Positions 10,501-55,808 of a stretch of DNA of 64,000 nt are shown here, piece by piece. The notes under the pieces were generated by a model. The model searched no databases. It had not been told where the DNA came from and saw only the letters and a list, made by a program, of their open reading frames with translations. How positions within the stretch are numbered: the stretch's first letter is position 1; each line of letters opens with the position of its first letter. The translations under genes and the position numbers were made by a program. The stretch lies in the NCBI GenBank assembly GCA_029266835.1, contig JAQSWD010000017.1, forward strand, positions 1 through 64,000. Direction: 5' to 3'. This stretch comes from Steroidobacteraceae bacterium. Its GTDB lineage: Bacteria > Pseudomonadota > Gammaproteobacteria > Steroidobacterales > Steroidobacteraceae.

Positions 10501-13500
10501 ACGGGAACCTTGCCACCTCTCGCGGTGCCTTTCCTGCTGGCCTGGCTGGCGGCACCGGCCGTGGCCTGGCGCATCAGCAAGGTTCCGGTGGCCGCGGCCA
10601 AGTCCGACCTCGAACCAGAAGACCAACGCGCGCTGCGACTGATCGCGCGTCGTACCTGGCGGTTCTTCGACACCTTCGTGACGGCGGAAGACCATCACCT
10701 GCCTCCCGACAACTACCAGGAAGATCCGCGCGGCGTGGTCGCGCACCGCACTTCCCCCACCAACATCGGTCTCTATCTACTTTCCATCGTCGCGGCGCGC
10801 GATTTCGGCTGGTGTGGCCTGCGCGACGCGCTCGACCGCATCGAGGCCACGCTGGGCACCTTGGGCCGAATGCAGAAGTACCGGGGCCACCTGTACAACT
10901 GGTACGACACCCAGGACCTCCGCCCGCTCGACCCGCGCTACGTGTCCTCCGTGGACTCGGGCAACCTCGCCGCGCACCTGATCGCGCTGGCGGGCGCGTT
11001 CCGCGAATGGCAGGAGCACCCCAACCCGCGGCGTGAAGCCCTGGCCGGGCTCGCCGATTCGCTCGACCTCGCGCGCGAGGCGCTGCGCCAGTTCCAGTTC
11101 CTTCCGGGCTTCACCATCACGCGTGGCATCGTCGAGACCGCGTTCTCCGATCTCGAAAGCGCGTTGCGTCCCGCGAACGCCGAGCCGCACGCCGGCAAGG
11201 ACGCGCTGGGCACGGCCGCCGAACGCGCGGCCACGCTCGTGGACATGATCAGAACGCTGGCCAGCGAAGCGCATCTCGACCGCGAGCACGACCTGCTGTA
11301 CTGGGTGGAAGCCACCAAGCGATCCATCGACAGCTGGCGCAGCGACCTGCTGGCGCGCGATCCGGCGGGTTTCATCGTCGAGTATCTCGAGACCCTGGCG
11401 AACACTTCACTGGAACTCGCCGATGCCATGGAGTTCGACTTCCTCTACGACCGCCAGCGCAAACTGCTGTCCATCGGCTTCCGCTGCAGCGACGGCACCC
11501 TGGACGACAGCTGTTACGACCTGCTGGCCTCCGAGGCGCGCCTCGCGAGCTTCATCGCCATCGCCAAGGGCGACCTCCCCGCGCGGCATTGGTTCCGACT
11601 CGGCCGCACGGTCACGCCCATCGGCTCCGGCGCCGCGCTGGTGTCCTGGTCGGGTTCGATGTTCGAGTACCTCATGCCCGACCTGGTGCTGCGCGCGCCC
11701 GGCGGTAGTTTGCTGGCGCAGACCAGCAGGCTCATCGTCAAGCGGCAGATCCAGTACGGCCGCGAGCTCGACATGCCCTGGGGCATCTCCGAGTCCGCGT
11801 ACAACGCGCGCGATCTCGAACTGACCTATCAATACTCCAACTTCGGCGTGCCGGGACTGGGCCTCAAGCGCGGCCTGTCCGAGAACAAGGTGATCGCGCC
11901 CTACGCCACCGGGCTCGCCGCCATGGTCGATGGCGACTCCGCACTGGCCAACTTCCGCACGCTGGAAAACCTGGGTGTCCGCGGTCCCTATGGTTTCTAC
12001 GAAGCCGTGGACTTCACGCCTTCGCGCGTGCCGGAGGGTCAGCGCTTCGTACCCGTGCGCGCGTACATGGCGCACCACCAGGGCATGACGGTGGTATCCA
12101 TTGCCAACGCCCTGCTCGACGGACGCATGCGCGAACGATTCCACCGGGATGTGACAGTGCAGGCCACCGACCTGCTGCTGCAGGAACGCACGCCGCGCGA
12201 CGTCTCCGTGGCGCATCCGCGTGCCGAGGAAGTGGGTACCGCGTCGCGCATCACCGAAATGCAGGTGCCCGACGTGCGCCGCCTCAAGAGCCCGCACGAT
12301 TCGGCACCCCAGACTCATCTGCTCTCCAATGGCCGGTACTCGGTCATGGTCACCGCGGCAGGCTCGGGCTACAGCCGCTGGAACGATCTGGCGGTCACGC
12401 GCTGGCGCGATGACAGCACGCGCGACGACACCGGCAGCTTCATCCTGCTGCGGGACATCGACACCGGCCGCGTGTGGTCGGCGGGTTACCAGCCTTGCGC
12501 CGGCCAGCCTGGTTCTTACGAAGCGAGCTTCACCGAGGACCGGGCGGAGATCATCCGCACCGATGGCGAACTGACGACCACCCTGGAAGTGCAGGTCTCG
12601 CCGGAAGACGATGCCGAGGTACGGCGTGTTTCGATCAGCAATTCCTCGACCAAGGCGCGCGAGGTGGAAATCACCTCCTATGCCGAACTGGTGCTGGGAT
12701 CGCAGTCGGCGGACATCGCCCACCCCGCGTTCTCGAAGATGTTCGTGCGCACCGAAATTCTGGCCGCGCAATCCGCCATCATCGCCAACCGCCGGCGCCG
12801 CGCGCCGGATGAGCCCGAACTCTGGGCTTCGCACAATGCAGTGATCGAAGGCAGCGTTATTTCCGGCCCCGAGTTCGAGACGGATCGCGCGCGTTTCATC
12901 GGCCGCGCGCGCGAACTTCGCGCGCCGCTGGCCATGCTCGAAGGCAGCACGCTGTCCGGCACCGCTGGCACGGTGCTCGACGCGGTGTTCGCGCTGCGCT
13001 ATCGCCTGCGTGTGCCGGCCGGCGGCACCGCGCGCATCGCCTACTGGACCTGCGTCGGGCAAAGCCGCGCGGCCGTGCTCGAGCAGATCGACAAGCATCG
13101 GGATGTCAACGCACATACCCGCACTGCCACGCTGGCCTGGACTCACGCTCAGGTGCAGCTGCGCCACTTCGGCATCGACGCCTCGCAGGCCAATCTGTTC
13201 CAGCAGCTCGCCGGCCGCATCCTGTATGTGGACGCCGCGGCGCGGCCGCCCGCGGACCAGGTCCGCCGCGGTCTCGAAGGGCCGCAGGGATTGTGGGCGC
13301 ACGGCATTTCCGGCGACCTGCCCATCGTCCTGCTGCGCGTCGAGGAGATGGACGACCTGGCCATCGTGCGGCAGCTGCTCCAGGCGCATGAGTACTGGGG
13401 CATCAAGCGGCTGTCGGTGGACCTGGTGCTGTTGAATGAACGCGGCGTCAGCTACATCCAGGACCTGCACCAGGCGCTGGAATCACTGGTACGCGTGAGC

Positions 13501-16206
13501 CAGGCGCGGCCGCGTATCGCGGGCGCCGATGCGCGCGGCAAGGTTTTCGTATTGCGCAATGACCTGGTGTCTGCCGAGAGCCGCGCGCTGCTGTCATCGG
13601 TGGCCCGCGTGGTGCTGTCGGGACGAAGCGGCAGCCTCGCCGACCAGGTGCAACGCATGCAGCCCGTCCCGACGGCCGCGCCACGCCCGCTGCGACGCGG
13701 ACCGCCGACCGCCGTCGCCCCCGGCGCTGCTGAAACCGATGGCACGCGTGACCTGGAGTTCTTCAATGGACTCGGTGGCTTTGGCTCGCAGGGCCGCGAG
13801 TACGTCATCGCCACCGGCGGCCAGCCCACGCCGCTGCCCTGGATCAACGTCGTCGCCAACCGCAGCTTCGGCTTCCAGGTCAGCGCCGAGGGCGGCGGCT
13901 ACACCTGGGCGCGCAACAGTCGCGACAACGCGCTCACGCCCTGGAGCAACGACGCGGTCACCGACCGTCCGGGCGAGGCTATCTACCTGCGCGACGAGGA
14001 GACCGGCGAGCTCTGGACGCCGACGCCCTCGCCGATCCGTCACGAGCAGGCTCACTACCGCTGCGCGCACGGCGCGGGATACACGCGTTTCGACCAGCGC
14101 TCGCACGGCATGTCGTTGTCGCTGGTGATGTTCGTGCCCGCCGACGACCCGATCAAGATCTGCCGGCTCACGGTGCACAATGACAGTCCGCGGCGCCGCA
14201 CGATCTCGGTGACCGGCTACGTCGAGTGGGTGCTCGGAGCCTCGCGCGGCGTGGGCGCGCCGCACGTGTTCACCGAAATCGACGAGATCACCCGGGCCAT
14301 ATTCGCGCGCAATCCCTGGAACACGGCCTTCCCCGGCGTCGCGTTCGCAGATCTCCATGGCCTGCAGACCGAGTGGACCGGCGACCGCCGCGAATTCCTG
14401 GGCCGTCATGGAACGCTGGATGCGCCGGCGGCGCTGTTGGCCGGAGGCGCCTTGTCCGGGAACACGGGCGCCGCGCTCGATGCCTGCGCGGCATTGCGCA
14501 CGCGCCTGGAAATGGAAGCCGGCGCCACCACCGAGGTGGTCTTCCTGTTAGGCCAGGCTTCCGACGCGCAACAGGCGCGCGAGCTGGTGAAACGTTATCG
14601 CCTCGCGCCGCTCGACAAGGAGCTCATCGCCATCGGCAAGCAATGGCAGGACCTGGATTCACACCTGCAGGTCAAGACGCCGGATCGCGCCTTCGATCTC
14701 ATGATGAACCACTGGCTGCTGTACCAGACGCTGGCCTGCCGCACCTGGGCACGTGCCGCGTTCTACCAGGCCAGTGGTGCCTATGGTTTCCGTGACCAAT
14801 TGCAGGATGCGATGGCCCTCGGGCTGGCACGGCCCGCGCTGCTGCGCGAGCAGATCCTGCGCGCGGCCTCGCGGCAATTCCCCGAGGGCGACGTGCAACA
14901 CTGGTGGCTGCCTCACAATGGCAGCGGCGTGCGCACGCATATCTCCGACGACCGTGTGTGGCTGGCCTACGTCACCGCGCAATACGTGGCGCTTACCGGT
15001 GACCGCGGCATCCTCGACGTCGAATTACCCTTCATCGAAGGGCCGCCGCTGCCGCGCGAGCGGCACGACAACTTCTTCGAGCCCCAGGTCAGCCACGAAA
15101 CCGCGACGCTGTTCGAACACTGCCGGCGCGGCCTGGAAGGCGCCTACCTGGGCGCGCACGGCCTGCCGCTGATCGGCACGGGCGACTGGAACGACGGCAT
15201 GAACCGCGTCGGCGAACATGGCCGTGGCGAGAGCGTCTGGTTGGGCTGGTTCCTGCACGCCACGCTGAACTCCTTCGCGCCGCTGGCGCAGGCGCGCGGC
15301 GAGCTCGCGCTGGCCACGACATGGCTGGGTGAAGCCAGCAAGTTGCGCGCCGCGCTCGAGACGCACGCCTGGGATGGCGAGTGGTATCGCCGCGGCTTCT
15401 TCGACGACGGCACCCCGCTGGGTTCCGCGGCCAGCGATGAGTGTCGCATCGACGCCATCGCGCAGTCCTGGAGCGTGATCTCCGGCGCCGCGCAGCCGCA
15501 GCGCGCCGAGAAAGCCATGGAATCGCTGGAGACCCACCTGCTCAGGCGCGATCCTCCGCTGGCGGTGCTGTTCACGCCGCCATTCGATCGATCGATGCAG
15601 GAACCCGGTTACGTGAAGGCGTACCCGAAGGGCATCCGTGAAAACGGCGGCCAGTACACGCATGCCGCCGTATGGACTTCCATCGCCTTCGCCATGCAAG
15701 GCAAGGCCGAGCGCGCCATGGAAGTGTTCAACATGCTGAACCCGATCAAGCGCGCGCCCACGCGCGCGGACGTGCAGCGATACAAAGTCGAGCCCTACGT
15801 GGTTGCGGCCGATGTGTACTCCGAAGCTCCACACGCCGGACGCGGAGGCTGGACCTGGTACACGGGTTCCGCGGGCTGGCTGTATCGCGCGGGCCTCGAG
15901 TGGATCCTCGGTTTCCGCCTGCGCGATGGCAGGCTGACCTTGTCACCCTGCGTGCCGCCCGACTGGGATGGCTTCAGCATCCAGTTCCGTTATCGCAGCA
16001 CCAGCTACGACATCCTCGTGGACAAACAACCTTCACCCACGTCGCTGCCGCAGTTCACCATCGATGGGCTCGTGCAGAAGCCGGGCCGAAACGTGGTGGA
16101 CCTGGTGGACGACGCGGGCCGCCACACCGTGCACGTGGCGTGGCCCTACGCCAGCGAACAGGCGGCTACAGCAGCTGAGGATTCCTCTGCCACACGGAAT
16201 AATTGA
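7564..16206 (+). CDS. ndvB: Cyclic beta-1,2-glucan synthase-like protein (NdvB/ChvB family, GT84-GH94)
   Basis: About 2,880 residues from ATG 7564 (frame open from 7462; start uncertain, no clear Shine-Dalgarno). NdvB/ChvB proteins of this size sit in the inner membrane and build cyclic or linear beta-1,2-glucan from UDP-glucose. Order seen: helical N-terminal region; membrane segments about 420-470; glycosyltransferase domain with LDADTRVP (about 635) and QHRWVRGDW (about 785); further membrane segments about 836-1004; glycoamylase-like domain from about 1065 (TSPTNIGLYLLSIVAARDFGW) with MPWGISESAYN at about 1405; two carbohydrate-binding/GH94-type beta-sandwich regions (about 1590-1850 and 2060-2330); and a C-terminal GH94 phosphorylase domain with GTGDWNDGMNRVG at about 2538. 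All catalytic blocks look intact. It is monocistronic. The product is probably periplasmic or exported glucan for osmoadaptation or host contact. Confidence 0.9.
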   Translation: MRIAHLRPGQHPLHPFLSGILESLSLGSHWNNEQILREEIFSTERLEQHAQTLAAAQGIARRPEFRRSLRARLRNNEKVMLAAYRSIARAVDEGRSITPAAEWVLDNYHVVEEQIREIREDLPPGFYRQLPKLAEGPFAGFPRVFGIAWAYVAHTDSRFEPETLRRFVRAYQSVAPLTIGELWAVAITLRIVLVENLRRVAQRIVTSRAARQEADTIADRLLGVNGQKLDPQALANWRGAGKSLTPAFAVQLVQRLRDQDPNLVPALQWLQARITAQGASPEQLVSEEHQRQGASNVTVRNIITSMRLMSDVDWAEFFESVSLVDEVLNSSSDFDAMDFATRNLYRTAIEELGRGSRLSELQIARQVLTTASTARNERERDPGFHLIGDGRQKLERAIGFRAPLRDWRKRIAFTVGARDYVASIGFVSALVLAVPLALLQQSGVHGGILWLLGLLGAVPAMDIAVALVNRAVTRGVGASRLPGLALRDGVPEELRTLVAVPVMLNSRAAVEKHLHSLEIHYLASPDDQLHFALLSDWIDSDTETQPGDDALLDIAVLGIARLNRRYGLAKGGDRFLLLHRKRVWCESEQRWMGWERKRGKLQELNRLLRGDAGTTYVTSTGKSPWVPSGVRYVLTLDADTRVPRETPRRLIGKMAHPLNRPLFDAKSGRVIDGYAILQPRVAFSLPVDVEATPFQRVFSGAAGVDPYAAAVSDVYQDLLGEGSFAGKGIYDVDAFEAALADRVPESTLLSHDLFEGIFARAGLASDVEVVEEFPSRYDVASLRQHRWVRGDWQLLPWIFGRKDAGAATHKRGHSRMPLIGLWKMLDNLRRSLSAPSSLAALVAGFTLPAAAAWQWCLFLLLALSLPTLQPLLGAVIPRRSTVTWRSHLRALRVDILLAIEQTALLVTMLPYQAWLMTDAIIRTGWRMLVSRRNLLEWIPADLLSSARSDFLSFYSRMLRGVAVAALAGLVVVLVDGPYATGTLPPLAVPFLLAWLAAPAVAWRISKVPVAAAKSDLEPEDQRALRLIARRTWRFFDTFVTAEDHHLPPDNYQEDPRGVVAHRTSPTNIGLYLLSIVAARDFGWCGLRDALDRIEATLGTLGRMQKYRGHLYNWYDTQDLRPLDPRYVSSVDSGNLAAHLIALAGAFREWQEHPNPRREALAGLADSLDLAREALRQFQFLPGFTITRGIVETAFSDLESALRPANAEPHAGKDALGTAAERAATLVDMIRTLASEAHLDREHDLLYWVEATKRSIDSWRSDLLARDPAGFIVEYLETLANTSLELADAMEFDFLYDRQRKLLSIGFRCSDGTLDDSCYDLLASEARLASFIAIAKGDLPARHWFRLGRTVTPIGSGAALVSWSGSMFEYLMPDLVLRAPGGSLLAQTSRLIVKRQIQYGRELDMPWGISESAYNARDLELTYQYSNFGVPGLGLKRGLSENKVIAPYATGLAAMVDGDSALANFRTLENLGVRGPYGFYEAVDFTPSRVPEGQRFVPVRAYMAHHQGMTVVSIANALLDGRMRERFHRDVTVQATDLLLQERTPRDVSVAHPRAEEVGTASRITEMQVPDVRRLKSPHDSAPQTHLLSNGRYSVMVTAAGSGYSRWNDLAVTRWRDDSTRDDTGSFILLRDIDTGRVWSAGYQPCAGQPGSYEASFTEDRAEIIRTDGELTTTLEVQVSPEDDAEVRRVSISNSSTKAREVEITSYAELVLGSQSADIAHPAFSKMFVRTEILAAQSAIIANRRRRAPDEPELWASHNAVIEGSVISGPEFETDRARFIGRARELRAPLAMLEGSTLSGTAGTVLDAVFALRYRLRVPAGGTARIAYWTCVGQSRAAVLEQIDKHRDVNAHTRTATLAWTHAQVQLRHFGIDASQANLFQQLAGRILYVDAAARPPADQVRRGLEGPQGLWAHGISGDLPIVLLRVEEMDDLAIVRQLLQAHEYWGIKRLSVDLVLLNERGVSYIQDLHQALESLVRVSQARPRIAGADARGKVFVLRNDLVSAESRALLSSVARVVLSGRSGSLADQVQRMQPVPTAAPRPLRRGPPTAVAPGAAETDGTRDLEFFNGLGGFGSQGREYVIATGGQPTPLPWINVVANRSFGFQVSAEGGGYTWARNSRDNALTPWSNDAVTDRPGEAIYLRDEETGELWTPTPSPIRHEQAHYRCAHGAGYTRFDQRSHGMSLSLVMFVPADDPIKICRLTVHNDSPRRRTISVTGYVEWVLGASRGVGAPHVFTEIDEITRAIFARNPWNTAFPGVAFADLHGLQTEWTGDRREFLGRHGTLDAPAALLAGGALSGNTGAALDACAALRTRLEMEAGATTEVVFLLGQASDAQQARELVKRYRLAPLDKELIAIGKQWQDLDSHLQVKTPDRAFDLMMNHWLLYQTLACRTWARAAFYQASGAYGFRDQLQDAMALGLARPALLREQILRAASRQFPEGDVQHWWLPHNGSGVRTHISDDRVWLAYVTAQYVALTGDRGILDVELPFIEGPPLPRERHDNFFEPQVSHETATLFEHCRRGLEGAYLGAHGLPLIGTGDWNDGMNRVGEHGRGESVWLGWFLHATLNSFAPLAQARGELALATTWLGEASKLRAALETHAWDGEWYRRGFFDDGTPLGSAASDECRIDAIAQSWSVISGAAQPQRAEKAMESLETHLLRRDPPLAVLFTPPFDRSMQEPGYVKAYPKGIRENGGQYTHAAVWTSIAFAMQGKAERAMEVFNMLNPIKRAPTRADVQRYKVEPYVVAADVYSEAPHAGRGGWTWYTGSAGWLYRAGLEWILGFRLRDGRLTLSPCVPPDWDGFSIQFRYRSTSYDILVDKQPSPTSLPQFTIDGLVQKPGRNVVDLVDDAGRHTVHVAWPYASEQAATAAEDSSATRNN

Positions 16207-16684
16207 GCGCGGCGGCGAAACACACCCACGCCAGGTAAGGCACGAGCAGCCAGGCCGCCAGCATCCGGATGCGCGCGAATGCCACGAGCGTCGCGACGAG
16301 CAGGGCCGCGAGAATCACGATGTCGAGCATCGCCAGCCCGCCGCGGTGCCAGGCGAAGAAGAACCAGGACCAGGCCGCGTTGACCGCCAGCTGCAGCACG
16401 AACAAGCCCAGCGCGCCACGCGCGCGTGACCAGCCGCGTTCGCGCCAGACCAGCCAGGCGGACACGCCCATCGACACATATAAGAGAGTCCACACCGGGC
16501 CGAACACATTCGACGGCGGAGCCCAGGACGGCCTGTCCAACCGGATGTAGAAATCGCCCGCGTTCGCCGACGCGATTGCGCCAATGGCGCCTGCGGCTCC
16601 GCACAGCGCGATCCATAGCGCCAACGCCAGCCACGGCGAGACGGGTGAAGGCAGGGTGCGCAGCGACCTATCGGGGGTGTTCAT
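16166..16684 (-). CDS. tspO: TspO/MBR family protein (tryptophan-rich sensory protein)
   Basis: 172 residues from ATG 16684 with five predicted membrane helices (ALALWIALCGAAGAIGA, VWTLLYVSMGVSAWLVW, LFVLQLAVNAAWSWFFFAW, MLDIVILAALLVATLVA, LLVPYLAWVCFAAALNYSVW). Signature TspO residues are present: RPSWAPPSNVFGPVWTLLY, NAAWSWFFF, and PYLAWVCFAAALNYSVWQ. The family binds porphyrins and tetrapyrroles and modulates stress responses. The gene is convergent with the glucan synthase gene and overlaps its 3' end by 41 bases. Confidence 0.93.
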   Translation of the reverse strand: MNTPDRSLRTLPSPVSPWLALALWIALCGAAGAIGAIASANAGDFYIRLDRPSWAPPSNVFGPVWTLLYVSMGVSAWLVWRERGWSRARGALGLFVLQLAVNAAWSWFFFAWHRGGLAMLDIVILAALLVATLVAFARIRMLAAWLLVPYLAWVCFAAALNYSVWQRNPQLL

Positions 16685-16782
16685 GCACACATACTCGCGT
16701 CCGCTGCGATCGTGCGCTACCGGGGGCGCGGTGTAGGAATTCTCTGTCACGACAATCCCTGCCGAGCCTTCTAAAGTGGGAT

Positions 16783-18558
16783 ATGGCCGTCAAAATCCCG
16801 CCGTCGGCGACCGACCTGGAAGCGGCGAACGCGCACCTGCGTTACACACTCGACCTGATGCGCGCCGAGCACCACCAGGCGCAGGCCGCCTTGCGCGAGG
16901 AGTCACGGCTGCTCGAGGTTCTCAACCAGACCGGCCAGTCCATCGCGTCGCAGCTCGAGATCGAGAAGCTGCTGCAGACGGTCACCGACTCGGCCACCGA
17001 ACTCACCGGCGCCAGGTTCGGTGCGTTCTTCTACAACCGCGTCAACGAGAATGGCGAGGACTATCTACTCTACACGCTCTCGGGCGCGCCGCGCGAAGCC
17101 TTCGACAAGTTCGGACATCCGCGTCCCACGGCGGTGTTCGCGCCAACGTTTCGCGGCGATGGACCGGTGCGCAGCGATGACATCACGCGCGACCCTCGGT
17201 ACGGACGGATGAGTCCGCACCATGGCATGCCGCCCGGCCATCTGCCGGTGCGCAGCTACCTGGCCACCGCGGTGAAGTCCCGGTCCGGCGAAGTGTTCGG
17301 CGGACTTTTCTTCGGCCATCCCGATGCCGGCAAATTCACGGAGCGCAGTGAACGGCTGGTGGTCAGCGTGGCCGCGCAGGCAGCCATCGCCATCGAAAAC
17401 GCGCGCCTCTACGAAGCGGCGCAGCGCGAGCTGGCGAATCGCCAGCGCGCCGAGGAGGCGTTGCGCGACAACGACCGGCGCAAGGACGAATTCCTCGCCA
17501 CGCTGGGGCATGAGTTGCGCAATCCGCTGGCGCCGATCCGGCAGGCGGCGAAGATCATCAGCTCCGACTCCGCCGACGAGCAGCAGAAGGCCTGGGCACA
17601 CGAGGTGATCTCGCGGCAGGTGCAGAACATGTCGTTGTTGCTGGAAGACCTGCTGGACATCTCGCGCATCACGCGCGGCACGCTCGAGCTGCGCAAACGG
17701 CATGTGACGCTGGCGCACATCATCGAATCCGCGGTGGAAACGGCCCGCCCCGCCATCGACACCAAGCGCCATAAGCTCGAAGTCGTACTGCCCAGCGAAA
17801 ACCTCGACCTCGAGGCGGATCCGCTGCGGCTGTCGCAGGTGCTGTCCAACCTGCTGACCAACGCCGCCAAGTACACCGACCCCGAGGGCAATGTACGGCT
17901 CCTCGCCGAAGTTCGCGGCGACCAGGTGGTGATCGCCGTGCGCGACGATGGCATCGGCATCGCCGCCGACGCGCTGCCCAACGTCTTCACCATGTTCTCG
18001 CAGGTGGCGTCGTCACGGTCCGGTGGAGGGCTGGGCATCGGACTGGCGTTGTCCAAAGGACTGGTCGAGATGCACGGCGGAACCTTGTCGGCCCACAGCG
18101 CGGGCCTGGGCCACGGCAGCGAATTCACGGTCCATCTGCCGGCGCAAGTCGTGTCGCGCACGCCGCGTGATCCGCCTCCCGCGGGGCCACCCCCGCCCTC
18201 CCGCCGCCGCCGCGTGCTGGTGGCCGACGACAACCGCGATGCCGGCGAAAGCCTCGCCATGCTGCTGCGTCTCGACGGTCACGAAGTCGAGATCGCCTTC
18301 GACGGTCCCGAGGCCTTGTCCCTGTTCGACCGCATGAAGCCGGAAGTGGCCATTCTCGATATCGGGATGCCTGGCCTCACCGGCTACGAAGTGGCGCAAC
18401 GCATCCGTGCGTTGCGTCCGGTGCGGCCGGTCACGCTGATCGCCGTGACCGGCTGGGGCCAGGATGCCGACAAAGAGCGGGCCGCGGAATCGGGCTTCGA
18501 TCACCATTTCACCAAGCCACTCGAACCCGACGCGCTGTCGGCGCTGCTGGTCAGCTGA
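16783..18558 (+). CDS. Hybrid sensor histidine kinase, GAF-HisKA-HATPase-REC
   Basis: 591 residues from ATG 16783. It has no membrane segment, so it is a soluble sensor. A short coiled coil (about 10-45) leads into a GAF domain (about 48-205, containing GARFGAFFYN and RSYLATAVKSRSGEVFGGLFFGHP). The dimerisation domain carries phospho-acceptor His243 in GHELRNPLAPI. The ATPase domain has N-box NLLTNAAKYTD, DDGIGI and GLGIGLALS. A proline-rich linker (463-474) precedes a receiver domain with phospho-acceptor Asp526 (ILDIGMPG) and Lys in FTKPLEP. There is no output domain and no adjacent response regulator, so phosphotransfer goes to an unlinked partner. The GAF ligand is unknown. Confidence 0.9.
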   Translation: MAVKIPPSATDLEAANAHLRYTLDLMRAEHHQAQAALREESRLLEVLNQTGQSIASQLEIEKLLQTVTDSATELTGARFGAFFYNRVNENGEDYLLYTLSGAPREAFDKFGHPRPTAVFAPTFRGDGPVRSDDITRDPRYGRMSPHHGMPPGHLPVRSYLATAVKSRSGEVFGGLFFGHPDAGKFTERSERLVVSVAAQAAIAIENARLYEAAQRELANRQRAEEALRDNDRRKDEFLATLGHELRNPLAPIRQAAKIISSDSADEQQKAWAHEVISRQVQNMSLLLEDLLDISRITRGTLELRKRHVTLAHIIESAVETARPAIDTKRHKLEVVLPSENLDLEADPLRLSQVLSNLLTNAAKYTDPEGNVRLLAEVRGDQVVIAVRDDGIGIAADALPNVFTMFSQVASSRSGGGLGIGLALSKGLVEMHGGTLSAHSAGLGHGSEFTVHLPAQVVSRTPRDPPPAGPPPPSRRRRVLVADDNRDAGESLAMLLRLDGHEVEIAFDGPEALSLFDRMKPEVAILDIGMPGLTGYEVAQRIRALRPVRPVTLIAVTGWGQDADKERAAESGFDHHFTKPLEPDALSALLVS

Positions 18559-47277: not shown

Positions 47278-47293
47278 TTCCGGCATGCCGGAA
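47278..47293. promoter_or_regulatory. Perfect 16-bp palindrome upstream of the kai operon
   Basis: TTCCGGCATGCCGGAA reads the same on both strands. It lies about 160 bp upstream of the kaiC start and 61 bp after the Lrp-family stop. A further short hairpin, CCGCCG-ATTC-CGGCGG, follows near 47327-47342. Either could be an operator; with the second stem they might also form a terminator for the upstream gene, though no T-run is present. Confidence 0.5.
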
Positions 47294-47424: not shown

Positions 47425-47452
47425 AAGACCATTCATGCTGGCAACCGATTTC

Positions 47453-48952
47453 ATGATCACGAACCATCGCAGCGAAATTGCAAAGGCGCCCACCGGAATA
47501 CCCGGCCTCGATGAAATCACACATGGCGGACTGCCCGCGGGGCGGCCCACGCTCCTGGCGGGAGGTCCCGGCTCGGGCAAAACCCTGCTTGGCGTCAGTT
47601 TCCTGGTGGAAGGCGCGCAGCGCTTCAACGAGCCCGGCGTCCTGCTCACCTTCGAGGAAAAGGTGGACGAGCTCGCCACGGACGTGCGCTCGCTGGGCTA
47701 CGACCTGCACAAGCTCTGCGAAGAGAAAAAACTGCTGATCGACTATGTCCATGTCGACCGCGCCGAGATCGAGGAAACCGGCGAATACGATCTCGAAGGC
47801 CTGTTCGTGCGCCTCGAACACGCCATCAAGGAAATCGGCGCCAAGCGCGTCATGCTCGACACCATCGAGACCTTGTTTGGTGGCCTCAAGGACACCGGCA
47901 TCCTGCGCGCGGAATTGCGGCGATTGTTCCGCTGGCTCCGGGACCGTGGCATGACCGCCATCATCACCGCCGAGCGCGGCGAGAACCAGTTCACCCGGCA
48001 GGGGCTGGAGGAATACGTCACGGATGCGGTGATTTCGCTGGACCATCGCGTCGAAGACCAGATTTCCACGCGCCGCATCCGCATCGTGAAGTATCGCGGC
48101 TCGACGCACGGCACCAACGAGTATCCGTTCCTGATCGGCCGTGACGGCATCAACGTGCTGCCGGTCACATCACTCTTGCTGGAACACGATGCGCCCGCCG
48201 AACGTATTTCCACTGGACTGCCGGCGCTCGACGGCATGCTGGGCGGCAAAGGCTTCTATCGCGCGAGCACGGTGTTGCTCACGGGTACCGCGGGCACGGG
48301 CAAGACCACGCTCTCGGCGCACTTCGTGGACGCGGCCTGCGCGCGCGGCGAGAAGTGCCTGTACTTCCTGTTCGAGGAATCGCCGCAACAGATGATGCGG
48401 AACATGGCCTCGGCCGGCATCCACCTGAAGCGCTGGGTCGACAAGGGGCTGCTCACCTTCCACGCCGAGCGGCCCAACAAGCATGGCCTCGAGAATCATC
48501 TGCTCGAAATGCACCACGCGGTGGAGACCGTGGATCCGGACGTGGTCGTGGTCGACCCCATCACCAACCTGATGACCGTCGGTTCGAACGCCGATGTCCG
48601 TTCCATGCTCACGCGTCTCATCGATTTCCTGAAGACTCGCGGCGTCACGGCGATGTTCGCCAGCCTCACCAGTTCCACCCAGGTCGCCGAGACCACAGAG
48701 GCTCTGATTTCCTCGCTGATGGACAGCTGGGTGCTGGTCGCCGCCGACACCGAGGGCAACCGGCGCAGCCGGAAGTTGTACGTGCTGAAGTCCCGCGGCA
48801 TGCAGCACTCGGATGAAGTGCGTCACTTCATGTTCACGTCCCATGGCATCGAACTGCTGCCGTCCGAGGACAAGACTGAAGGTGCGGTCACGGTTGCCGG
48901 TCGGACCGGCAAGGCCGGGCGTTCGCCCGCACGCGCGCGCAAGGGGAAATGA
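47453..48952 (+). CDS. kaiC: KaiC-family circadian clock ATPase
   Basis: 499 residues from ATG 47453 (ATG 47435 and 47387 are in frame; none has a good Shine-Dalgarno, and the shorter product matches the family start ahead of PTGIPGLD). Two RecA-like domains. CI: Walker A GGPGSGKT (37-44), catalytic Glu pair 68-69. CII: Walker A GTAGTGKT (278-285), Glu pair 308-309. The segment aligned with the Synechococcus phosphorylation sites Ser431-Thr432 reads ISSLMD, so the acceptor pair is Ser420-Ser421. The tail is short and basic. KaiC hydrolyses ATP and autophosphorylates; here two kaiB genes follow, coupled by an ATGA overlap. There is no kaiA, as is usual outside cyanobacteria. Confidence 0.93.
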
Positions 48953-48954
48953 CC

Positions 48955-49260
48955 ATGCCAGAGAAATACCAACCAGAGAAATACGAATTGCGATTGTATG
49001 TGGCCGGCCGGACGCCGAAGGCCGTGCGCGCCTTCGCGAACCTGCGCAAGATCTGCGACGAGCATCTCTCGGGACGTTACAGCATCGAAGTCATCGACCT
49101 GGTCGAAAACCCCGCGCTCGGGCGCGGCGACCAGATCCTGGCGCTGCCGACGCTGGTGCGCAAACTACCCACGCCGATCAAGAAGATCATCGGCGACCTG
49201 TCCAACACCGAACGCGTCCTCGTGGGCCTGGACCTGCGCCCGCGCCGAGCCAGTGCGTGA
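48955..49260 (+). CDS. kaiB: KaiB-family protein, first copy
   Basis: 101 residues from ATG 48955 (AGGGGA seven to eight bases upstream; ATG 48949, overlapping the kaiC stop as ATGA, is the alternative). It matches canonical KaiB across its length: [84 protein letters not shown]. The KaiB fold-switch region, including the Pro residues of LPTL and LPTP, is retained. It is expected to bind the KaiC CI ring. Its stop overlaps the next kaiB start (GTGA). Confidence 0.95.
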
Positions 49261-49544
49261 TTCCAACCGAACAATATGTGCTTCGCCTGTACGTCACCGG
49301 CATGACGCCGCGTTCCACGCGCGCGATCAAGTGCGTGCGCGATGTCTGCGAGCAGCACCTCATGGGTCAATACGACCTGGAGATCATCGATGTCTATCAA
49401 ACTCCGTCGCGTCTCGTGCAGGACCAGATCGTGGCCATACCCACGCTGGTGAAGTGCACGCCCGCACCGATCCGGCTCATGGTCGGAGACATGTCCAATC
49501 GCGAACGCCTGCTCACGGGCCTGGGGTTGCCGCTCGATGATTAG
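49257..49544 (+). CDS. KaiB-family protein, second copy
   Basis: 95 residues from GTG 49257, overlapping the first kaiB stop by four bases. KaiB-like throughout: [83 protein letters not shown]. It is clearly diverged from copy one (Cys in place of several small residues, MVGD for IIGD), so it is not a recent duplicate and probably does a different job. Its stop overlaps the kinase ATG by eight bases. Confidence 0.92.
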
Positions 49545-51165
49545 CGCCGACATCGACGAACTCAGCGTCGAGGAATTGCGGACCCGGCTTTCCGAGGCGG
49601 AGCACAACCTGCTCGCCATCTACAGCGGCGAAATCGATGCCCTGCTGCTCGCGGACGAGAGCGGCGAGCGGCGCGTCTTCACGCTGCGCAGCGCTGACGC
49701 GCCTTATCGCGCGCTGGTGGAACGCATGCAGGAAGGCGCCGCCACACTTTCCGTGGATGGCGACATCGTCTACTGCAACCAGCGATTCGCGGACCTGGTG
49801 CGCCGGCCGCTCAACCAGGTGTTCGGCGTGCCCGTGGGCGAGTTCCTGCCGTCCACGGAAAGCGAAATCCTCAAGACCATCCTCGAGCACGGCACGGGTC
49901 GCTATGTCACGCGCCTGGTGCTCGACGGCGTGGAAGCCACCGAGGTGCAGATCACGGTGAGCAGCATCGTGCTCGATGACGTCGAGCATCGCACGCTCAT
50001 CATGAGCGACATCAGTTCGCTGGCGCGCGCGCAGCGCGAGAGCCGCTCCAAGGACGAATTCCTCGCGATGCTGGCGCATGAGCTGCGCAATCCGCTGGGC
50101 GCGATCCAGGGCGCCGTGCATGCGCTGGGCATCATCGGCCATTCGGATCCCATGGCCCTGCGCGCGACCGGGATCATCAAGCGGCAGGTGGTCCACATGG
50201 CTCGGCTGGTCGACGACCTGCTGGATGTGGGCCGCGCGGTGACGGGCAAGATAGTGCTCAAGCGGCGCCCGGTGAATCTCGGCGACTGCGTCAAGTCGTC
50301 GGTGACCGCGCTGGCCGCGGGCAACCCCAATTTCGCACGCCTGCAGGTGGAATGCGAAAACGCGTGGATACAGGGCGACGCCGTGCGGCTGGAGCAGATC
50401 ACCGGCAATCTCGTTTCCAACGCGCTCAAGTTTTCTCAATCGGAACGGCCCGTGGTCGTCCGCGTGTCCTGTGAAGGCCAGCACGCGGTGCTGCGGGTGA
50501 CCGACCAGGGCGTTGGGATTCCCGAGGAGATGCTGCCGCGGATCTTCGACCTGTTCGTGCAGGCGCACCACACCATCGACCGGTCGCGCGGCGGTCTCGG
50601 CATCGGGCTCACGCTGGTTCGACGATTGGCGGAGCTGCACGGCGGCACCGTCGAAGCCACGAGTGAAGGCGATGGGCGCGGCGCCACGTTCACCGTCCGG
50701 TTGCCGCTCACCGAGGCGCCCGACTCGCTGGCCGACGCCAAGGCCGACGCCAAGGCCGACGCGAAGGGATTGCCCGATAAGCATGTGCAGCGATACGAAG
50801 AATCGCGGCGCGTGCTGCTGGTGGATGACAACCACGATTCCCGCGAGATGTATCGCGCCGTGCTGCGTGCGCACGGCCACGACGTGCGCGAGGCCGCCGA
50901 TGGCGAGCGCGCGCTGGCCGTGATCGAGACCGCCGACCTCGATGTCGCCTTCATCGACATCGGGTTACCGGGCGGCATGGATGGTTACGAACTCGCGCGG
51001 CGGATCCGCTCGCATCCCAAGGGCCGCGCAGTGAGGCTGGTGGCGCTCACCGGTTATGGATTCCCCGAAGACCGCGCGCAGTCGCGCCAGGCCGGTTTCG
51101 CGCGCCACCTGGTGAAACCCGTCGAGCCGGATGTACTGCAGCGCGAACTCAACTCGCTGCGTTGA
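49537..51165 (+). CDS. PAS hybrid histidine kinase of the kai operon (PAS-HisKA-HATPase-REC)
   Basis: 542 residues, soluble. Order: short coiled coil; PAS domain (about 55-165; LVERMQEGAATLSVDGDIVYCNQRFADLV); HisKA with phospho-acceptor His181 (LAHELRNPLGAIQG); ATPase domain with NLVSNALKFSQ, DQGVGIPEEM and GGLGIGLTLV; a linker of three ADAK units; receiver domain with Asp474 (FIDIGLPGGMDG) and Lys in VKPVEPD. It overlaps the second kaiB by eight bases, so all four genes are made together. By analogy with SasA in cyanobacteria it is the probable output of the Kai proteins, although its sensor is a PAS domain, not a KaiB-like one. Confidence 0.92.
   Translation: MISADIDELSVEELRTRLSEAEHNLLAIYSGEIDALLLADESGERRVFTLRSADAPYRALVERMQEGAATLSVDGDIVYCNQRFADLVRRPLNQVFGVPVGEFLPSTESEILKTILEHGTGRYVTRLVLDGVEATEVQITVSSIVLDDVEHRTLIMSDISSLARAQRESRSKDEFLAMLAHELRNPLGAIQGAVHALGIIGHSDPMALRATGIIKRQVVHMARLVDDLLDVGRAVTGKIVLKRRPVNLGDCVKSSVTALAAGNPNFARLQVECENAWIQGDAVRLEQITGNLVSNALKFSQSERPVVVRVSCEGQHAVLRVTDQGVGIPEEMLPRIFDLFVQAHHTIDRSRGGLGIGLTLVRRLAELHGGTVEATSEGDGRGATFTVRLPLTEAPDSLADAKADAKADAKGLPDKHVQRYEESRRVLLVDDNHDSREMYRAVLRAHGHDVREAADGERALAVIETADLDVAFIDIGLPGGMDGYELARRIRSHPKGRAVRLVALTGYGFPEDRAQSRQAGFARHLVKPVEPDVLQRELNSLR
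50731..50766 (+). repeat. Three tandem 12-bp units encoding (ADAK)3
   Basis: GCCGACGCCAAG repeated three times, the last copy differing at one base. It codes for the charged, flexible linker between the kinase core and the receiver domain. Units are multiples of three, so copy-number change would alter linker length without frameshift. Confidence 0.9.
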
Positions 51166-52551: not shown

Positions 52552-54975
52552 TCAGAACGCCGTGCCCACCGAAAACTGGAATTTCTCGATCTCGTCGCCG
52601 AACAGCCGGCGTGTCTGGTGCTGGTATTGCAGTGGCACCGCGTACGAAAAGCGGAACAGGCCCATGGGCGACAGCCACTGGATGGATGCGCCCGCCGAGG
52701 TGCGTACCTCGCCGAGATCGAACTTGTAGTCGGTACGGTCGCCGCGCAGGTTGCGGAACTGCGTGTCACCCAGGTAGTAAGACTGGCCGGCGTCGAAGAA
52801 CAAGCTGACGCGCGCGGATGTCCGGAATTTCTCCGGCATCGGCATGATGAGATCGAACTGCGTCGAGAAGCCCGCGTCGCCGCCGTACGGATTTCCGAGA
52901 GAATCGCGCGGGCCCAGCGAACCGTCGCGGAAGCCACGCACCGAATCGGCACCACCGGTGAAAATGTGCCGGTGCGGTGGTGTCGCGGTGGTATCCCCCA
53001 GCGCCGTGGACCAGCCGATATTGGTCGTGACCTGGATGGGAAACCTGTCGAGGAAATCCCACCCCGGAAGCCGGAAGAACTGCTGCGAGCGGAAGTTCAC
53101 CGTGGCGTATTCCACCGCGCTGCCCGGCGGCGTCACGCCGAAACTCAACCGATGCAGGCCACCGCGTGTCGGGAACAGTGAACGGTCGCGGCTTTCCCGA
53201 TACCAGCCGCCGGTGATCTCCACCGAATCGATGATGGTGCCCAGGATCGGATCGCTGCCGACACGCCTGAAATAGTAATCGCCGTTGTCACGCACCCAGT
53301 CGCGCAGCTGCGATGAACTGCTGCGCACGGTGGCGAGATTTTCGTGGCTGTAGTTGAGGCCCAGGCTCAGGTACTGGTCGTCGGAAACCGGGTACCCCAC
53401 GCTGAATCCCGCGGAATACGTCTTGGTGGTGAACTGAGAGAACGACGAGGTCAGGCGGTCGCGTTCGATGTACGACGCGCTCAACGATCGGGAAATGCCA
53501 TCGACGGTGAAAAATGAATCGGTGTGCTGGATGCTGTACACCTTGCTGTACTGTCCACCATTGAGCTCCAGCCCCAGGCGGTCGCCGCTGCCGAGGAAAT
53601 TGCTGTCGATGAAGTTACCGCTGAGAATGAAGGCCTGCCGCTCGGAGTAGCCGATGCCACCGCCGAGTTGTGAGGAAGGCCCCTCCTCGATCTTGAACTC
53701 CACGTCGACCAGGTCCGCCGAGCCCGGCACACGCCTGGTTTCCGTCTCCACGGATTTGATGTACGGCAACCGCTGCAATCTTTCCTCGGAGCGCGTGAGC
53801 GCATTGTTGGAGAGGACGGCGCCTTCGAACTGGCGCATCTCCCGGCGCAGCACTTCGTCGTCGGTCTTCTGCACGCCCGAGAACTCGATGCGGCGAACGT
53901 AGGCGCGTGCATTGGGCTCGATCACGAAAGTGAGCGCGATCTCGTGCTTGTCAGCGTCGGCGGCCGGCACTGCCGCGACGTCGGCGAAGGCGTAGCCCGC
54001 CTCGCTCAGGCGTTCACCCAGCGCTTTTTCCGTGGCAGCGATCAGGCGCTGTGAATACTGGTCGCCCGGCTGCACGAAGAGGTATTGCCGCAGGATGGCC
54101 TCGGACACGACGAAGCGGCCCGCGAGTTTCACCGCGCCGAGCTTCCAGGTTTCACCTTCGTGCACGTTGATGGTGATGAACAGGTCGTCTTTTTCGGGGG
54201 CAAGAGAGACCTGCGTCGAGGTGATCTCGAAATCCGCGTAACCCCGATCCATGTAGTGGGAGCGGATCTTCTCGAGGTCACCTTCCAGTGACTGGCGCGA
54301 ATAGCGATCGTCCTGCCGGTAGAACGACAGCAGGTTGCTGGACCGCAGCTCCAGCCCGGCGAGCAACTCTTCGTCCGGGTAACGCTGGTTGCCGACGATG
54401 TTGATCTGCCGGATGCGCGCGCGCTGGCCCTCCTTGATGTCGATGTGCACGTCGACCAGGTTGCCGGCCTGCTCTTCCACTTTCGTGTCCACGATCACGC
54501 CGTAGCGGCCGCGCGAGAAGTACTGATCGACCAGGAACTGGCGCACGTCCTCGAGCGTGGAACGGTCGAGGATCTTTCCCCGCGCGAGCCCGACGTTGCG
54601 CAGGGACTTGTTGAGGTCCTCGGTCTTGACCTCCTTGTTGCCCGTGATCTTGAAATCGCGGATCGAGGGGCGCTCCTGCACCACGACGATGAGCACTCCA
54701 GGCTCTTCGCGACGCAATTCGACGTCCCGGAAGAACCCGGTGTCATTGAGCGCGCGCAGCGCCTCGCGCAGCCGCTGCGGCGTGACACGGTCGCCGATGT
54801 TCACCGGCAACTGGTTGAAAACCGTGCCTTCCGTGATCCGCTGCAGTCCTTCGACGCGGATGCCGGTGACCGTGAACTCGCCGGATGCCGCCACCTGCGC
54901 GCCGGCATCTCCAGCCGCGGCGACGACACTAACTAACAGAAGGATTTGGCAGAAGGCGCCGAGACCGTTTTTCAT
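52552..54975 (-). CDS. bamA: Outer-membrane protein assembly factor BamA
   Basis: 807 residues from ATG 54975, normal for BamA. Signal peptide to about residue 27. Five POTRA domains (about 33-430; first FTVTGIRVEGLQRITEGTVFNQLPVNIGD) and a 16-strand barrel with the diagnostic VRGF of loop 6 (about 677) and C-terminal Phe (FSVGTAF). It folds and inserts outer-membrane proteins. It is not in the usual rseP-bamA-skp-lpxD cluster, so either the gene has moved or this is a second copy. Its divergent neighbour is an OmpR-type regulator. Confidence 0.94.
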   Translation of the reverse strand: MKNGLGAFCQILLLVSVVAAAGDAGAQVAASGEFTVTGIRVEGLQRITEGTVFNQLPVNIGDRVTPQRLREALRALNDTGFFRDVELRREEPGVLIVVVQERPSIRDFKITGNKEVKTEDLNKSLRNVGLARGKILDRSTLEDVRQFLVDQYFSRGRYGVIVDTKVEEQAGNLVDVHIDIKEGQRARIRQINIVGNQRYPDEELLAGLELRSSNLLSFYRQDDRYSRQSLEGDLEKIRSHYMDRGYADFEITSTQVSLAPEKDDLFITINVHEGETWKLGAVKLAGRFVVSEAILRQYLFVQPGDQYSQRLIAATEKALGERLSEAGYAFADVAAVPAADADKHEIALTFVIEPNARAYVRRIEFSGVQKTDDEVLRREMRQFEGAVLSNNALTRSEERLQRLPYIKSVETETRRVPGSADLVDVEFKIEEGPSSQLGGGIGYSERQAFILSGNFIDSNFLGSGDRLGLELNGGQYSKVYSIQHTDSFFTVDGISRSLSASYIERDRLTSSFSQFTTKTYSAGFSVGYPVSDDQYLSLGLNYSHENLATVRSSSSQLRDWVRDNGDYYFRRVGSDPILGTIIDSVEITGGWYRESRDRSLFPTRGGLHRLSFGVTPPGSAVEYATVNFRSQQFFRLPGWDFLDRFPIQVTTNIGWSTALGDTTATPPHRHIFTGGADSVRGFRDGSLGPRDSLGNPYGGDAGFSTQFDLIMPMPEKFRTSARVSLFFDAGQSYYLGDTQFRNLRGDRTDYKFDLGEVRTSAGASIQWLSPMGLFRFSYAVPLQYQHQTRRLFGDEIEKFQFSVGTAF

Positions 54976-55082
54976 TGCGCAATACGACCCGCAGCCGGCC
55001 TTGCGGTTCGTCGGAAATTGTTTCCAAGTGTTTCGAAAGGTTACGGAATTTGTGCATGGAACCTTTCGCGCGGTTCGTGGCA
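54976..55082. promoter_or_regulatory. Divergent bamA / response-regulator control region with 9-bp inverted repeat
   Basis: Contains CGAAAGGTT (55034-55042) and AACCTTTCG (55060-55068), perfect 9-bp arms with a 17-base spacer, and a smaller GGAAA-TTG-TTTCC (55013-55025). The larger repeat lies 15-49 bases upstream of the regulator start at 55083 and could be an operator or an mRNA hairpin. Confidence 0.45.
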
Positions 55083-55808
55083 ATGAGCAGGATGGCCGCC
55101 GGCAAACACATACTCATCGTCGACGAGGACCGCGAAGCGCGGGCCGCACTGGCCGGGCACCTCGAGCACCACGGCTTCCGGGTCACGGCGGCCGCCAGCG
55201 GCGTGGCCATGCAGCGCGCGCTGGAACGCGCACGCATCGACCTCGTAATCCTCGATCTGCATCCCGGTGAAGATGGAGCGCGAGTCACGCGCTCATTGAG
55301 GGCGGGCGGCGATCTGCCGTTCATCATCCTGGCGCGGCGCGACGACGCCGTGGACCGCATCGTCGGCCTGGAGATGGGCGCCGACGACTACCTCACGAAA
55401 CCGGTGAATCCACGCGAGCTGCTGGCGCGCATGCGCAACATCCTGCGCCGGTCGGGCGGCGCCAGCGCGATTCCGGCCGCACGCACGCGCGTGTATCGAT
55501 TTGGCGGCTGGCAGCTGGACGTGGTCACCCGCGAGCTCTCGTGCCCCGAAGGCCGCCCGCCCGCGCCCCTGCGCAATGCGGAATTCCGCGTCCTGTCCTC
55601 ACTACTGGCGCATGGCAACCGCGTGGTCGCCCGCAGCAAGCTCATCGAGCTCGCACGCGGCCGCGACGCCGGGCCGTTCGACCGGAGCATCGACGTGCGC
55701 ATCAGCCGGCTGCGCCAGATCCTCGGCGACGATGCGCGGGGTCCACGCATCATCAAGACGGTCCACGGTGAAGGTTATGTCATTGGCGTCCTGGTCGAGC
55801 GCGCCTGA
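55083..55808 (+). CDS. OmpR/PhoB-type response regulator with atypical receiver
   Basis: 241 residues from ATG 55083 (55056 and 55092 are alternatives). Receiver domain (1-120): acidic pocket DED (14-16), phospho-acceptor Asp58, Lys106 in LTKPVNP. C-terminal winged helix (about 140-238): RFGGWQLDVVTRELSCPEGRP, LRNAEFRVLSSLLAHGNRVVARSKLIELARGRDAGPFDRSIDVRISRLRQILGDDARGPRIIKTVHGEGYVIG. Two oddities: the loop after Asp58 reads DLHPGEDG, one residue shorter than the usual DxxxPGxDG, and the switch Thr/Ser is Ala84 (IILARRDDAVDR). No kinase gene is adjacent. Confidence 0.88.
   Translation: MSRMAAGKHILIVDEDREARAALAGHLEHHGFRVTAAASGVAMQRALERARIDLVILDLHPGEDGARVTRSLRAGGDLPFIILARRDDAVDRIVGLEMGADDYLTKPVNPRELLARMRNILRRSGGASAIPAARTRVYRFGGWQLDVVTRELSCPEGRPPAPLRNAEFRVLSSLLAHGNRVVARSKLIELARGRDAGPFDRSIDVRISRLRQILGDDARGPRIIKTVHGEGYVIGVLVERA

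What the first reader, a model, noticed from the sequence alone, without database searches (positions are those of the whole stretch)
47453..51165. Complete coupled kaiC-kaiB-kaiB-kinase operon in a gammaproteobacterium
Four genes with overlaps of a few bases at the two downstream junctions and an ATGA overlap or 2-base gap between kaiC and the first kaiB (depending on the start used), encode a double-domain KaiC, two diverged KaiB proteins and a PAS hybrid kinase. kaiA is absent. Kai homologues are known outside cyanobacteria, but two KaiBs feeding one PAS-REC kinase is a compact, testable timing or stress system: each KaiB may bind a different KaiC state or one may bind the kinase.
Basis: partly seen in the sequence, partly recalled or inferred. 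Interest (0 to 1): 0.75.

Follow-up and report, generated by a model that had tools for sequence, protein, structure and literature searches.

The report
Clock-like kaiC operon with two KaiBs
This bacterial genome carries a four-gene clock-like switch (one KaiC, two different KaiB proteins, one sensor kinase); the same set recurs in many bacteria and archaea, and the second KaiB resembles the domain that passes the clock signal on in cyanobacteria.

Summary
Window 47453-51165 encodes a double-domain KaiC, two diverged KaiBs and a PAS-HisKA-HATPase-REC kinase on one strand with touching or overlapping genes; no KaiA was found. The arrangement is not peculiar to this organism: a kaiC1-kaiB2-kaiB1-kaiR1 cluster is in print for Methylobacterium extorquens AM1, and of 80 named loci kept from a scan 77 have KaiB1 then KaiB2, 69 all four genes, in Bacteria and Archaea. 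(1) By sequence profiles KaiB2 is closer than KaiB1 to the cyanobacterial SasA sensor domain. (2) The kinase begins with a ~50-residue module that no Pfam or NCBIfam family shown covers; in 398 Pseudomonadota genomes it occurred in 9, each time directly behind a kaiB. (3) The KaiC belongs to a KaiC2-lineage group without the C-terminal tail that holds the Rhodobacter sphaeroides hourglass together. Most likely reading: a KaiA-free, nucleotide-driven hourglass or stress switch, KaiB1 resetting KaiC and KaiB2 acting as a detached SasA-type adaptor to the kinase. The adaptor role is inferred, not shown.

The parts
47278..47293 (.). perfect 16-base palindrome TTCCGGCATGCCGGAA between the Lrp/AsnC gene and kaiC; possible terminator of the upstream gene or operator (role unknown)
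   Evidence: only copy in the window (0.02 expected, up to 2 mismatches); its 12-base core is absent from L213 and L214 of the same genus
47453..48952 (+). kaiC: double P-loop KaiC, KaiC2-type lineage, tail-less (alternative starts 47435, 47387)
48710..48715 (+). codons of the Ser-Ser pair that aligns with the KaiC phosphorylation sites (S426 S427 counted from the ATG at 47435)
48955..49260 (+). kaiB1: canonical-type KaiB, same group as R. sphaeroides KaiB (alternative start 48949)
49257..49544 (+). kaiB2: second KaiB type, closer by profile to the SasA domain, start GTG, overlaps kaiB1 by 4 bases
49537..51165 (+). hybrid histidine kinase, overlaps kaiB2 by 8 bases
49564..49728 (+). N-terminal Kai-associated module of the kinase (residues 10-64: helix, beta-hairpin, lead into PAS; SGEIDALLL...VFTL)
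49705..50016 (+). PAS domain of the kinase (residues 57-160)
50050..50238 (+). HisKA dimerisation/phosphoacceptor domain
50374..50712 (+). HATPase_c catalytic domain
50812..51147 (+). REC receiver domain

Best explanation
A KaiA-free KaiBC switch of the KaiC2-type lineage with a dedicated kinase output. KaiC forms a double-ring ATPase that phosphorylates its own Ser-Ser pair without KaiA. KaiB1, the canonical KaiB, binds the post-hydrolysis CI ring when ATP/ADP falls and drives KaiC back to the unphosphorylated state. KaiB2, mostly in the thioredoxin-like (SasA-like) state, docks on the same CI surface and brings the ring state to the kinase, whose N-terminal helix-hairpin module receives it; phosphate then passes to the REC domain and on to an unlinked response regulator. 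Shown here: gene set, domain content, conserved order, catalytic and phosphosite residues, KaiB1 and KaiB2 as two old types, KaiB2's profile likeness to SasA, the kinase module found only behind kaiB in a Pseudomonadota sample, absence of the KaiC tail. Taken from the R. sphaeroides work: autophosphorylation without KaiA, KaiB binding to the ADP-bound CI ring. Inferred: KaiB2 as adaptor, its state, the direction of signalling, the target.
For: Both Walker A motifs, the Glu pairs (the residues mutated in R. sphaeroides KaiC) and the Ser-Ser pair are intact. Nearest solved KaiCs are the R. sphaeroides ones (E 1e-168), which phosphorylate without KaiA and bind KaiB in the ADP state (PMC10076222). 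KaiB1 groups with R. sphaeroides KaiB (96/83). A KaiB2 profile finds the SasA domain in the PDB (6x61 28.1 bits, 1t4y 26.9 bits); a KaiB1 profile gives 12.6 bits for 6x61 and does not list 1t4y up to E 10; the best thioredoxin scores 20.1 and 20.5 bits (different chains) and canonical cyanobacterial KaiBs differ by under 5 bits. In 60 of 60 resampled profile pairs each of 4 Nostocales SasA domains preferred KaiB2, by 17-19 bits on average; 4 canonical KaiBs preferred neither. The SasA family model NF006800 matches KaiB2 (2.8e-6) and is not listed for KaiB1 at E 0.01. Legionella KaiB (87.6 against 69.5 bits) and KaiB TV-4 (77.3 against 67.3), described as fold-switched in PMC10808063, lean to the KaiB2 profile. 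KaiB2 was modelled in the thioredoxin-like topology. Kinase module: 9 genomes of 398, 9 of 9 directly behind kaiB; the R. sphaeroides kai kinase has it.
Against: No KaiB2-kinase fusion was seen; the one apparent case (L148) was two different frames. The kinase module also occurs with one KaiB1-type KaiB (R. sphaeroides L059, L061, L043), so it does not need KaiB2. By single sequence KaiB2's best solved match is a canonical KaiB and SasA does not appear at E 0.01. By structure the KaiB2 model is nearer to fold-switched KaiB (Z 14) than to SasA (1t4y Z 11.0), and SasA scores no better than thioredoxins (Z 10-12). The SasA branch could not be placed in the tree. KaiB2s mostly keep the fold-switch residues G88 (83%) and D90 (75%), so they need not be locked; the window's has G90. 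The KaiB2 profile is broader (mean identity 0.68 against 0.79 in the resampled subsets), and 4 N-extended cyanobacterial KaiBs also prefer it in 60 of 60. No KaiB1 control structure was predicted. No timing, phosphorylation or interaction was measured.
Confidence: 0.45

Rival explanations
1. KaiB2 does not touch the kinase. It is a second KaiC ligand that competes or cooperates with KaiB1 on the CI ring and sets threshold or speed; the kinase reads KaiC (or KaiB1-KaiC) directly through its N-terminal module.
For: The kinase module occurs with a single KaiB1-type KaiB in R. sphaeroides and others. KaiB2 keeps most KaiB-typical residues and passes the KaiB Pfam cut-off. L085 and L146 carry three and four KaiBs in a row, which fits tuning by dosage.
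Against: KaiB2's profile likeness to the SasA domain and its place before the kinase gene are unexplained.
Confidence: 0.32
2. It is a stress or energy-state switch without any timing role: KaiC phosphorylation reports ATP/ADP and the kinase raises stress resistance. (This can hold together with either view of KaiB2.)
For: In M. extorquens AM1 KaiC1, whose gene heads the two-kaiB cluster, promotes temperature-dependent UV resistance (PMC8069551). The operon is patchy in this genus and family, and methanogens carry the set.
Against: Compatible with an hourglass; the R. sphaeroides relative is described as following day-night nucleotide changes (PMC10076222).
Confidence: 0.4
3. The kinase is the input, not the output: its PAS domain senses redox or oxygen and sets KaiC.
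For: Proposed for the R. sphaeroides operon kinase (PMC5520375, passage; PMC10931921, passage).
Against: The kinase carries its own REC and the KaiC has no receiver domain; cyanobacterial SasA is an output factor (PMC5520375).
Confidence: 0.2
4. KaiB2 is a decaying or redundant duplicate of KaiB1.
For: KaiB2 is less conserved (63% against 76% mean column identity).
Against: KaiB2 keeps its own nearly invariant residues (Y47, Q48, K66 in over 90%) and its place over many phyla.
Confidence: 0.04

Closest known systems
kaiC1-kaiB2-kaiB1-kaiR1 cluster of Methylobacterium (Methylorubrum) extorquens AM1
   Same: Four genes, one KaiC with two phosphorylated serines, two KaiBs, a fourth gene kaiR1 (PMC8069551, passages)
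KaiBC hourglass of Rhodobacter (Cereibacter) sphaeroides
   Same: KaiC lineage and Ser-Ser pair, KaiB of the KaiB1 group, downstream kinase with the same N-terminal module; no KaiA (PMC10076222)
   Different: One KaiB in the operon; kinase annotated as HWE-type; KaiC carries 103 residues after the CII core by my alignment against 29 here
Cyanobacterial KaiABC-SasA clock
   Same: KaiB and KaiC homologues, a histidine kinase; KaiB2 resembles the SasA sensor domain by profile
   Different: No KaiA found, Ser-Ser instead of Ser-Thr, kinase without a KaiB match, second KaiB as a separate protein
kaiC-kaiB gene context ('orange group') of the Ramlibacter genome paper
   Same: kaiC and kaiB clustered, mostly with a kinase or GGDEF/EAL gene downstream outside cyanobacteria, SS or ST sites (PMC3164672, section 17 read, legends)
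   Different: The text read does not mention two KaiBs; its figures were not held

Membership tests
KaiC2 subgroup (R. sphaeroides type) | two P-loop domains with Walker A and Glu pair in each | tested here: met
KaiC2 subgroup (R. sphaeroides type) | two serines at the phosphosites | tested here: met
   SS in the window; SS in 70 of 75 KaiC rows of the named loci, the rest 2 SA, 1 AS, 1 masked, 1 gap
KaiC2 subgroup (R. sphaeroides type) | groups with R. sphaeroides KaiC rather than other KaiC types | tested here: met
   98* in a FastTree tree without bootstrap, midpoint root; best PDB matches 8db3, 8dba, 8fwi
KaiC2 subgroup (R. sphaeroides type) | C-terminal extension ('predominantly' in the kaiC2 subgroup, PMC10076222) | tested here: not met
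   29 residues after the CII core against 87-129 in 82 of 96 KaiC rows of all types
Cyanobacterial KaiABC clock | KaiA | tested here: not met
   no PF07688 match at E 0.001 in the own genome, 87% complete; KaiA3-like proteins not searched separately
Cyanobacterial KaiABC clock | SasA: kinase with N-terminal KaiB-like domain | tested here: not met
   no KaiB match in this kinase at E 0.01; other kinases of the genome not examined for it, but no further KaiB match in the genome
Cyanobacterial KaiABC clock | 24-hour phosphorylation rhythm | not testable with these tools
   needs experiment
KaiB family (Pfam PF07689) | score above the curated cut-off | tested here: met
   90.9 and 85.7 bits against 27
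KaiB equivalog (NCBIfam NF006798, TIGR02654) | score above the curated cut-off | tested here: not met
   KaiB1 102.7 of 110 and 97.2 of 145.3; KaiB2 92.1 of 110 and 88.3 of 145.3
Two-KaiB cluster (M. extorquens kaiC1 cluster) | one kaiC, two kaiBs and a fourth regulator gene in that order | tested here: met
   against PMC8069551; nature of kaiR1 not verified
Two-KaiB cluster (M. extorquens kaiC1 cluster) | UV-resistance phenotype through KaiC | not testable with these tools
   needs experiment
R. sphaeroides hourglass | KaiC dodecamer through the coiled coil | tested here: not met
   the sequence lacks the tail that forms the coil; the oligomeric state itself was not testable

The most novel reading that the evidence does not exclude
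The KaiB1-KaiB2-kinase set is an old, domain-crossing output system: KaiB2 is the free-standing form of what became, by gene fusion, the SasA sensor domain of cyanobacteria, and the helix-hairpin module is its kinase receptor. In the tail-less group of the window, KaiB1 binding would take the KaiC hexamer apart (as it does for tail-deleted R. sphaeroides KaiC, PMC10076222), making ring assembly itself the timed signal.
Probability: 0.18. Interest if true: 0.85.

Novelty: new variant of a known kind. Interest (0 to 1): 0.5.

Why it matters
How KaiBC systems without KaiA and without SasA pass on their state is open as far as I know. If KaiB2 is the detached SasA domain and the kinase module its receptor, the output path of many non-cyanobacterial Kai systems becomes testable with four purified proteins, and the origin of SasA gets a concrete candidate. 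The tail-less KaiC group is a natural version of the tail deletion made in R. sphaeroides and would show whether KaiB-driven ring disassembly is used in life.

Tried and rejected
Fusion of KaiB2 to a kinase in L148: suggested by overlapping open frames, rejected when the frames were read. KaiB2 as a protein locked in the fold-switched state for the whole family: not supported, most keep G88 and D90. Kinase module as a KaiB2-only partner: rejected, it also follows single KaiBs. A link to the OmpR-type regulator at 54975-55808: rejected as Kai-specific, because most of that stretch (from 55056) aligns with G002, which lacks the operon at this place. SasA's place in the KaiB tree: unresolved; its one-clade test did not finish. 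A count not chosen that way: 38 of 398 Pseudomonadota genomes, the window's included, have KaiB, and 4 of the 38 (the window's included) have two KaiB matches within 200 bases of each other; some others have two about 0.9 kb or more apart. In the order sample 12 of 396 have KaiB and 5 of 12 a pair within 200 bases, one of them with a fragment. Kinase counts were too strict and were redone. L123 (masked letters) and L124 (broken frame) look tail-less for that reason and are not counted; L066 and L067 are another KaiC type; L150 and L161 are single short-tailed cases outside the window's group. The Foldseek rows for the kinase N-terminus are PAS and LOV proteins; the helix-hairpin part was not folded or searched alone. 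Confidence in the best explanation was lowered from 0.50 to 0.45 on re-reading, because single-sequence and structural comparison do not single out SasA; that of the first rival rose from 0.30 to 0.32, and the probability of the novel case fell from 0.20 to 0.18.

Papers: PMC8069551, PMC10808063, PMC5520375, PMC6627678 and PMC10931921 by passages; PMC3164672 passages and section 17; PMC10076222 outline, passages and sections 5, 9 and 10; all others only as search listings. That the KaiB1-KaiB2 pair across phyla, the KaiB2-SasA likeness and the kinase module were not seen in print rests on searches of open papers, none of them aimed at the module; subscription papers (Iguchi 2018 and Loza-Correa 2014 among them) were not read.
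Full report
Observation. The four genes are present at the stated coordinates on the + strand. kaiC (47453 or 47435 to 48952) and kaiB1 (48949 or 48955 to 49260) overlap by 4 bases or lie 2 apart; kaiB2 (GTG 49257 to 49544) overlaps kaiB1 by 4 bases and the kinase (49537 to 51165) overlaps kaiB2 by 8. Pfam gives two KaiC domains, one KaiB domain in each small protein, and PAS, HisKA, HATPase_c and REC in the kinase. The NCBIfam cut-off is passed by KaiC for NF006799 (667.8 against 408 bits) but not for TIGR02655 (318.3 against 546.25), and by neither KaiB for the two KaiB equivalogs. The own genome (87% complete) gave no other KaiB match, no other place with two KaiC domains and no KaiA match.

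Context. Upstream lie genes that read as metH and metF (names recalled from the sequence, not searched) and an Lrp/AsnC regulator, downstream a DUF4397 protein and an Omp85 protein. In the same-genus genome G002 both flanking blocks align, and the 1.6 kb between them holds a hydrolase-like frame (class recalled, no family search) instead of the kai operon. In G001 the operon is present, with a relative of that hydrolase between Lrp and kaiC, and different sequence downstream. So the operon follows the Lrp gene in two of these genomes and is absent there in the third. It is patchy: KaiB was found in 9 of 196 relatives and 12 of 396 genomes of the order sample, the window's genome included in both.

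How common the arrangement is. A scan of species genomes with a KaiB1 alignment confirmed 551 loci and kept the best 80. Of these 80, 77 hold a KaiB1-type gene followed by a KaiB2-type gene; 69 of the 77 have KaiC upstream and a kinase downstream. Five lack KaiC upstream (L083, L109, L113, L141, L148; in L109 and L113 it lies behind the kinase) and three lack the kinase (L115, L117, L153, whose stretches end soon after). Record titles name Acidobacteria, Chloroflexi, Deltaproteobacteria, Planctomycetes, Nostocales, Methylococcaceae, methanogens and other archaea among others. A plasmid of Pararhizobium qamdonense has kaiC, two kaiBs and a gene annotated 'response regulator' that matches the window kinase, with the same 8-base overlap. 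The set was chosen by similarity to KaiB1, so 77 of 80 is not a frequency in nature: in the phylum sample 38 of 398 genomes have KaiB and 4 of the 38 a close pair. In print, M. extorquens AM1 has kaiC1-kaiB2-kaiB1-kaiR1 (PMC8069551), so the arrangement is known.

Two old KaiB types. In a tree of 93 KaiB domains the 32 KaiB1s fall with six single KaiBs, R. sphaeroides' included, in one supported group (96/83); the KaiB2s cluster apart but not as one clade, and the set has few columns for its size. The window's KaiB1 and KaiC each group with the same-genus copy and then with the Acidobacteria locus L084 (98/92; 98); its KaiB2 groups with the same-genus copy (100/99) and then, below the star level, with other Acidobacteria. 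The set seems to travel together. The types differ most at positions (S. elongatus numbering) 47 (L/V/M against Y), 41 (I against L), 16, 24, 66 (R against K) and 48 (E/K against Q) in 85 sequences each.

KaiB2 and SasA. A KaiB2 profile (60 sequences) matches the SasA sensor domain in the PDB at 28.1 and 26.9 bits; a KaiB1 profile (40 sequences) gives 12.6 bits for one and does not list the other up to E 10. The best thioredoxin scores about the same with both (20.1 and 20.5 bits, different chains), canonical cyanobacterial KaiBs within 5 bits; R. sphaeroides KaiB prefers KaiB1 by 8. Four Nostocales SasA domains preferred KaiB2 in 60 of 60 resampled profile pairs, by 17-19 bits on average; four canonical KaiBs preferred neither; three R. 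sphaeroides-type KaiBs preferred KaiB1 in 60 of 60. Against this: four N-extended cyanobacterial KaiBs also preferred KaiB2, the KaiB2 profile is broader, so part of the effect may be breadth; the single KaiB2 sequence does not reach SasA; and the KaiB2 model is nearer to fold-switched KaiB (Z 14) than to SasA (Z 11), which does no better than thioredoxins. Legionella KaiB and KaiB TV-4, which PMC10808063 describes as fold-switched, lean to the KaiB2 profile. The KaiB2 model (pLDDT 80.6) has the thioredoxin-like topology. AlphaFold's choice of state for KaiB depends on the alignment, and no KaiB1 control was run.

The kinase module. Before the PAS domain lies a conserved stretch (EAEETLxAIxSGEVDALVV...GEQVFTLxGAD..YR), seen by a loose pattern in 73 of 74 kinases. 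No family shown covers residues 1-46 of the window kinase: Pfam matches begin at 57, the 25 NCBIfam rows shown of 156 at 47 or later, and in the N-terminal part alone at 55 or later. The model shows a long helix and a beta-hairpin before PAS. A consensus of it was found once in each of 9 of 398 Pseudomonadota genomes at E 1e-8, and all 9 places lie within 100 bases behind a kaiB (coordinates); 29 of the 38 KaiB genomes had no such match. In the own genome the first 100 residues match only this kinase at E 0.01. The R. sphaeroides operon kinase has it as well, so it goes with one or two KaiBs.

The tail-less KaiC. After the CII core the window KaiC has 29 residues; 82 of 96 KaiC rows of all types have 87-129. 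It shares the short end with G001 (the same sequence as L082), L073, L084, L120, L126 and L156, one group in the KaiC tree (support 100, FastTree, no bootstrap); two single cases lie elsewhere (L150, L161). In R. sphaeroides the tail forms a coiled coil that joins two hexamers; without it KaiC still phosphorylates itself, but KaiB binding breaks the hexamer into monomers (PMC10076222). The same is predicted, not shown, for the window KaiC.

Mechanism and verdict. The best reading is a KaiA-free hourglass or energy switch: KaiC phosphorylates itself, KaiB1 resets it at low ATP/ADP, KaiB2 links the ring to the kinase. The last step is inference from profile likeness to SasA and gene order; against it stands that the kinase module does not need KaiB2. 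The finding is real, its arrangement is known, and the tail-less, two-KaiB form is a variant of a known kind.

Noticed in passing
L085 and L146: Three and four KaiB genes in a row in one operon, in a Chloroflexi and a Planctomycetota record.
   Followed up: no
L062 and L071 (same family as the window genome): KaiC (and in L071 KaiB1) is split or incomplete while KaiB2 and the kinase stay open; decay or assembly error.
   Followed up: no
Nostocales loci L110, L118, L128, L142: The two-KaiB operon stands in the same genomes as a canonical-type KaiB, an N-extended KaiB and a full SasA.
   Followed up: partly
window 47278-47293: Perfect palindrome upstream of kaiC, single copy in the window; its core is absent from the two same-genus stretches examined.
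   Followed up: partly
L213 8352-9884 and L214 about 8165-9700: Hydrolase-like gene next to Lrp, where the window has the kai operon.
   Followed up: partly
window 7462-16206: 2914-residue protein with GH94 and putative glucoamylase domains, cyclic-glucan-synthase-like (name recalled; domains).
   Followed up: no
window 16426-18558: A second hybrid kinase, with a GAF domain; the Kai-associated module was not found in it at E 0.01.
   Followed up: no
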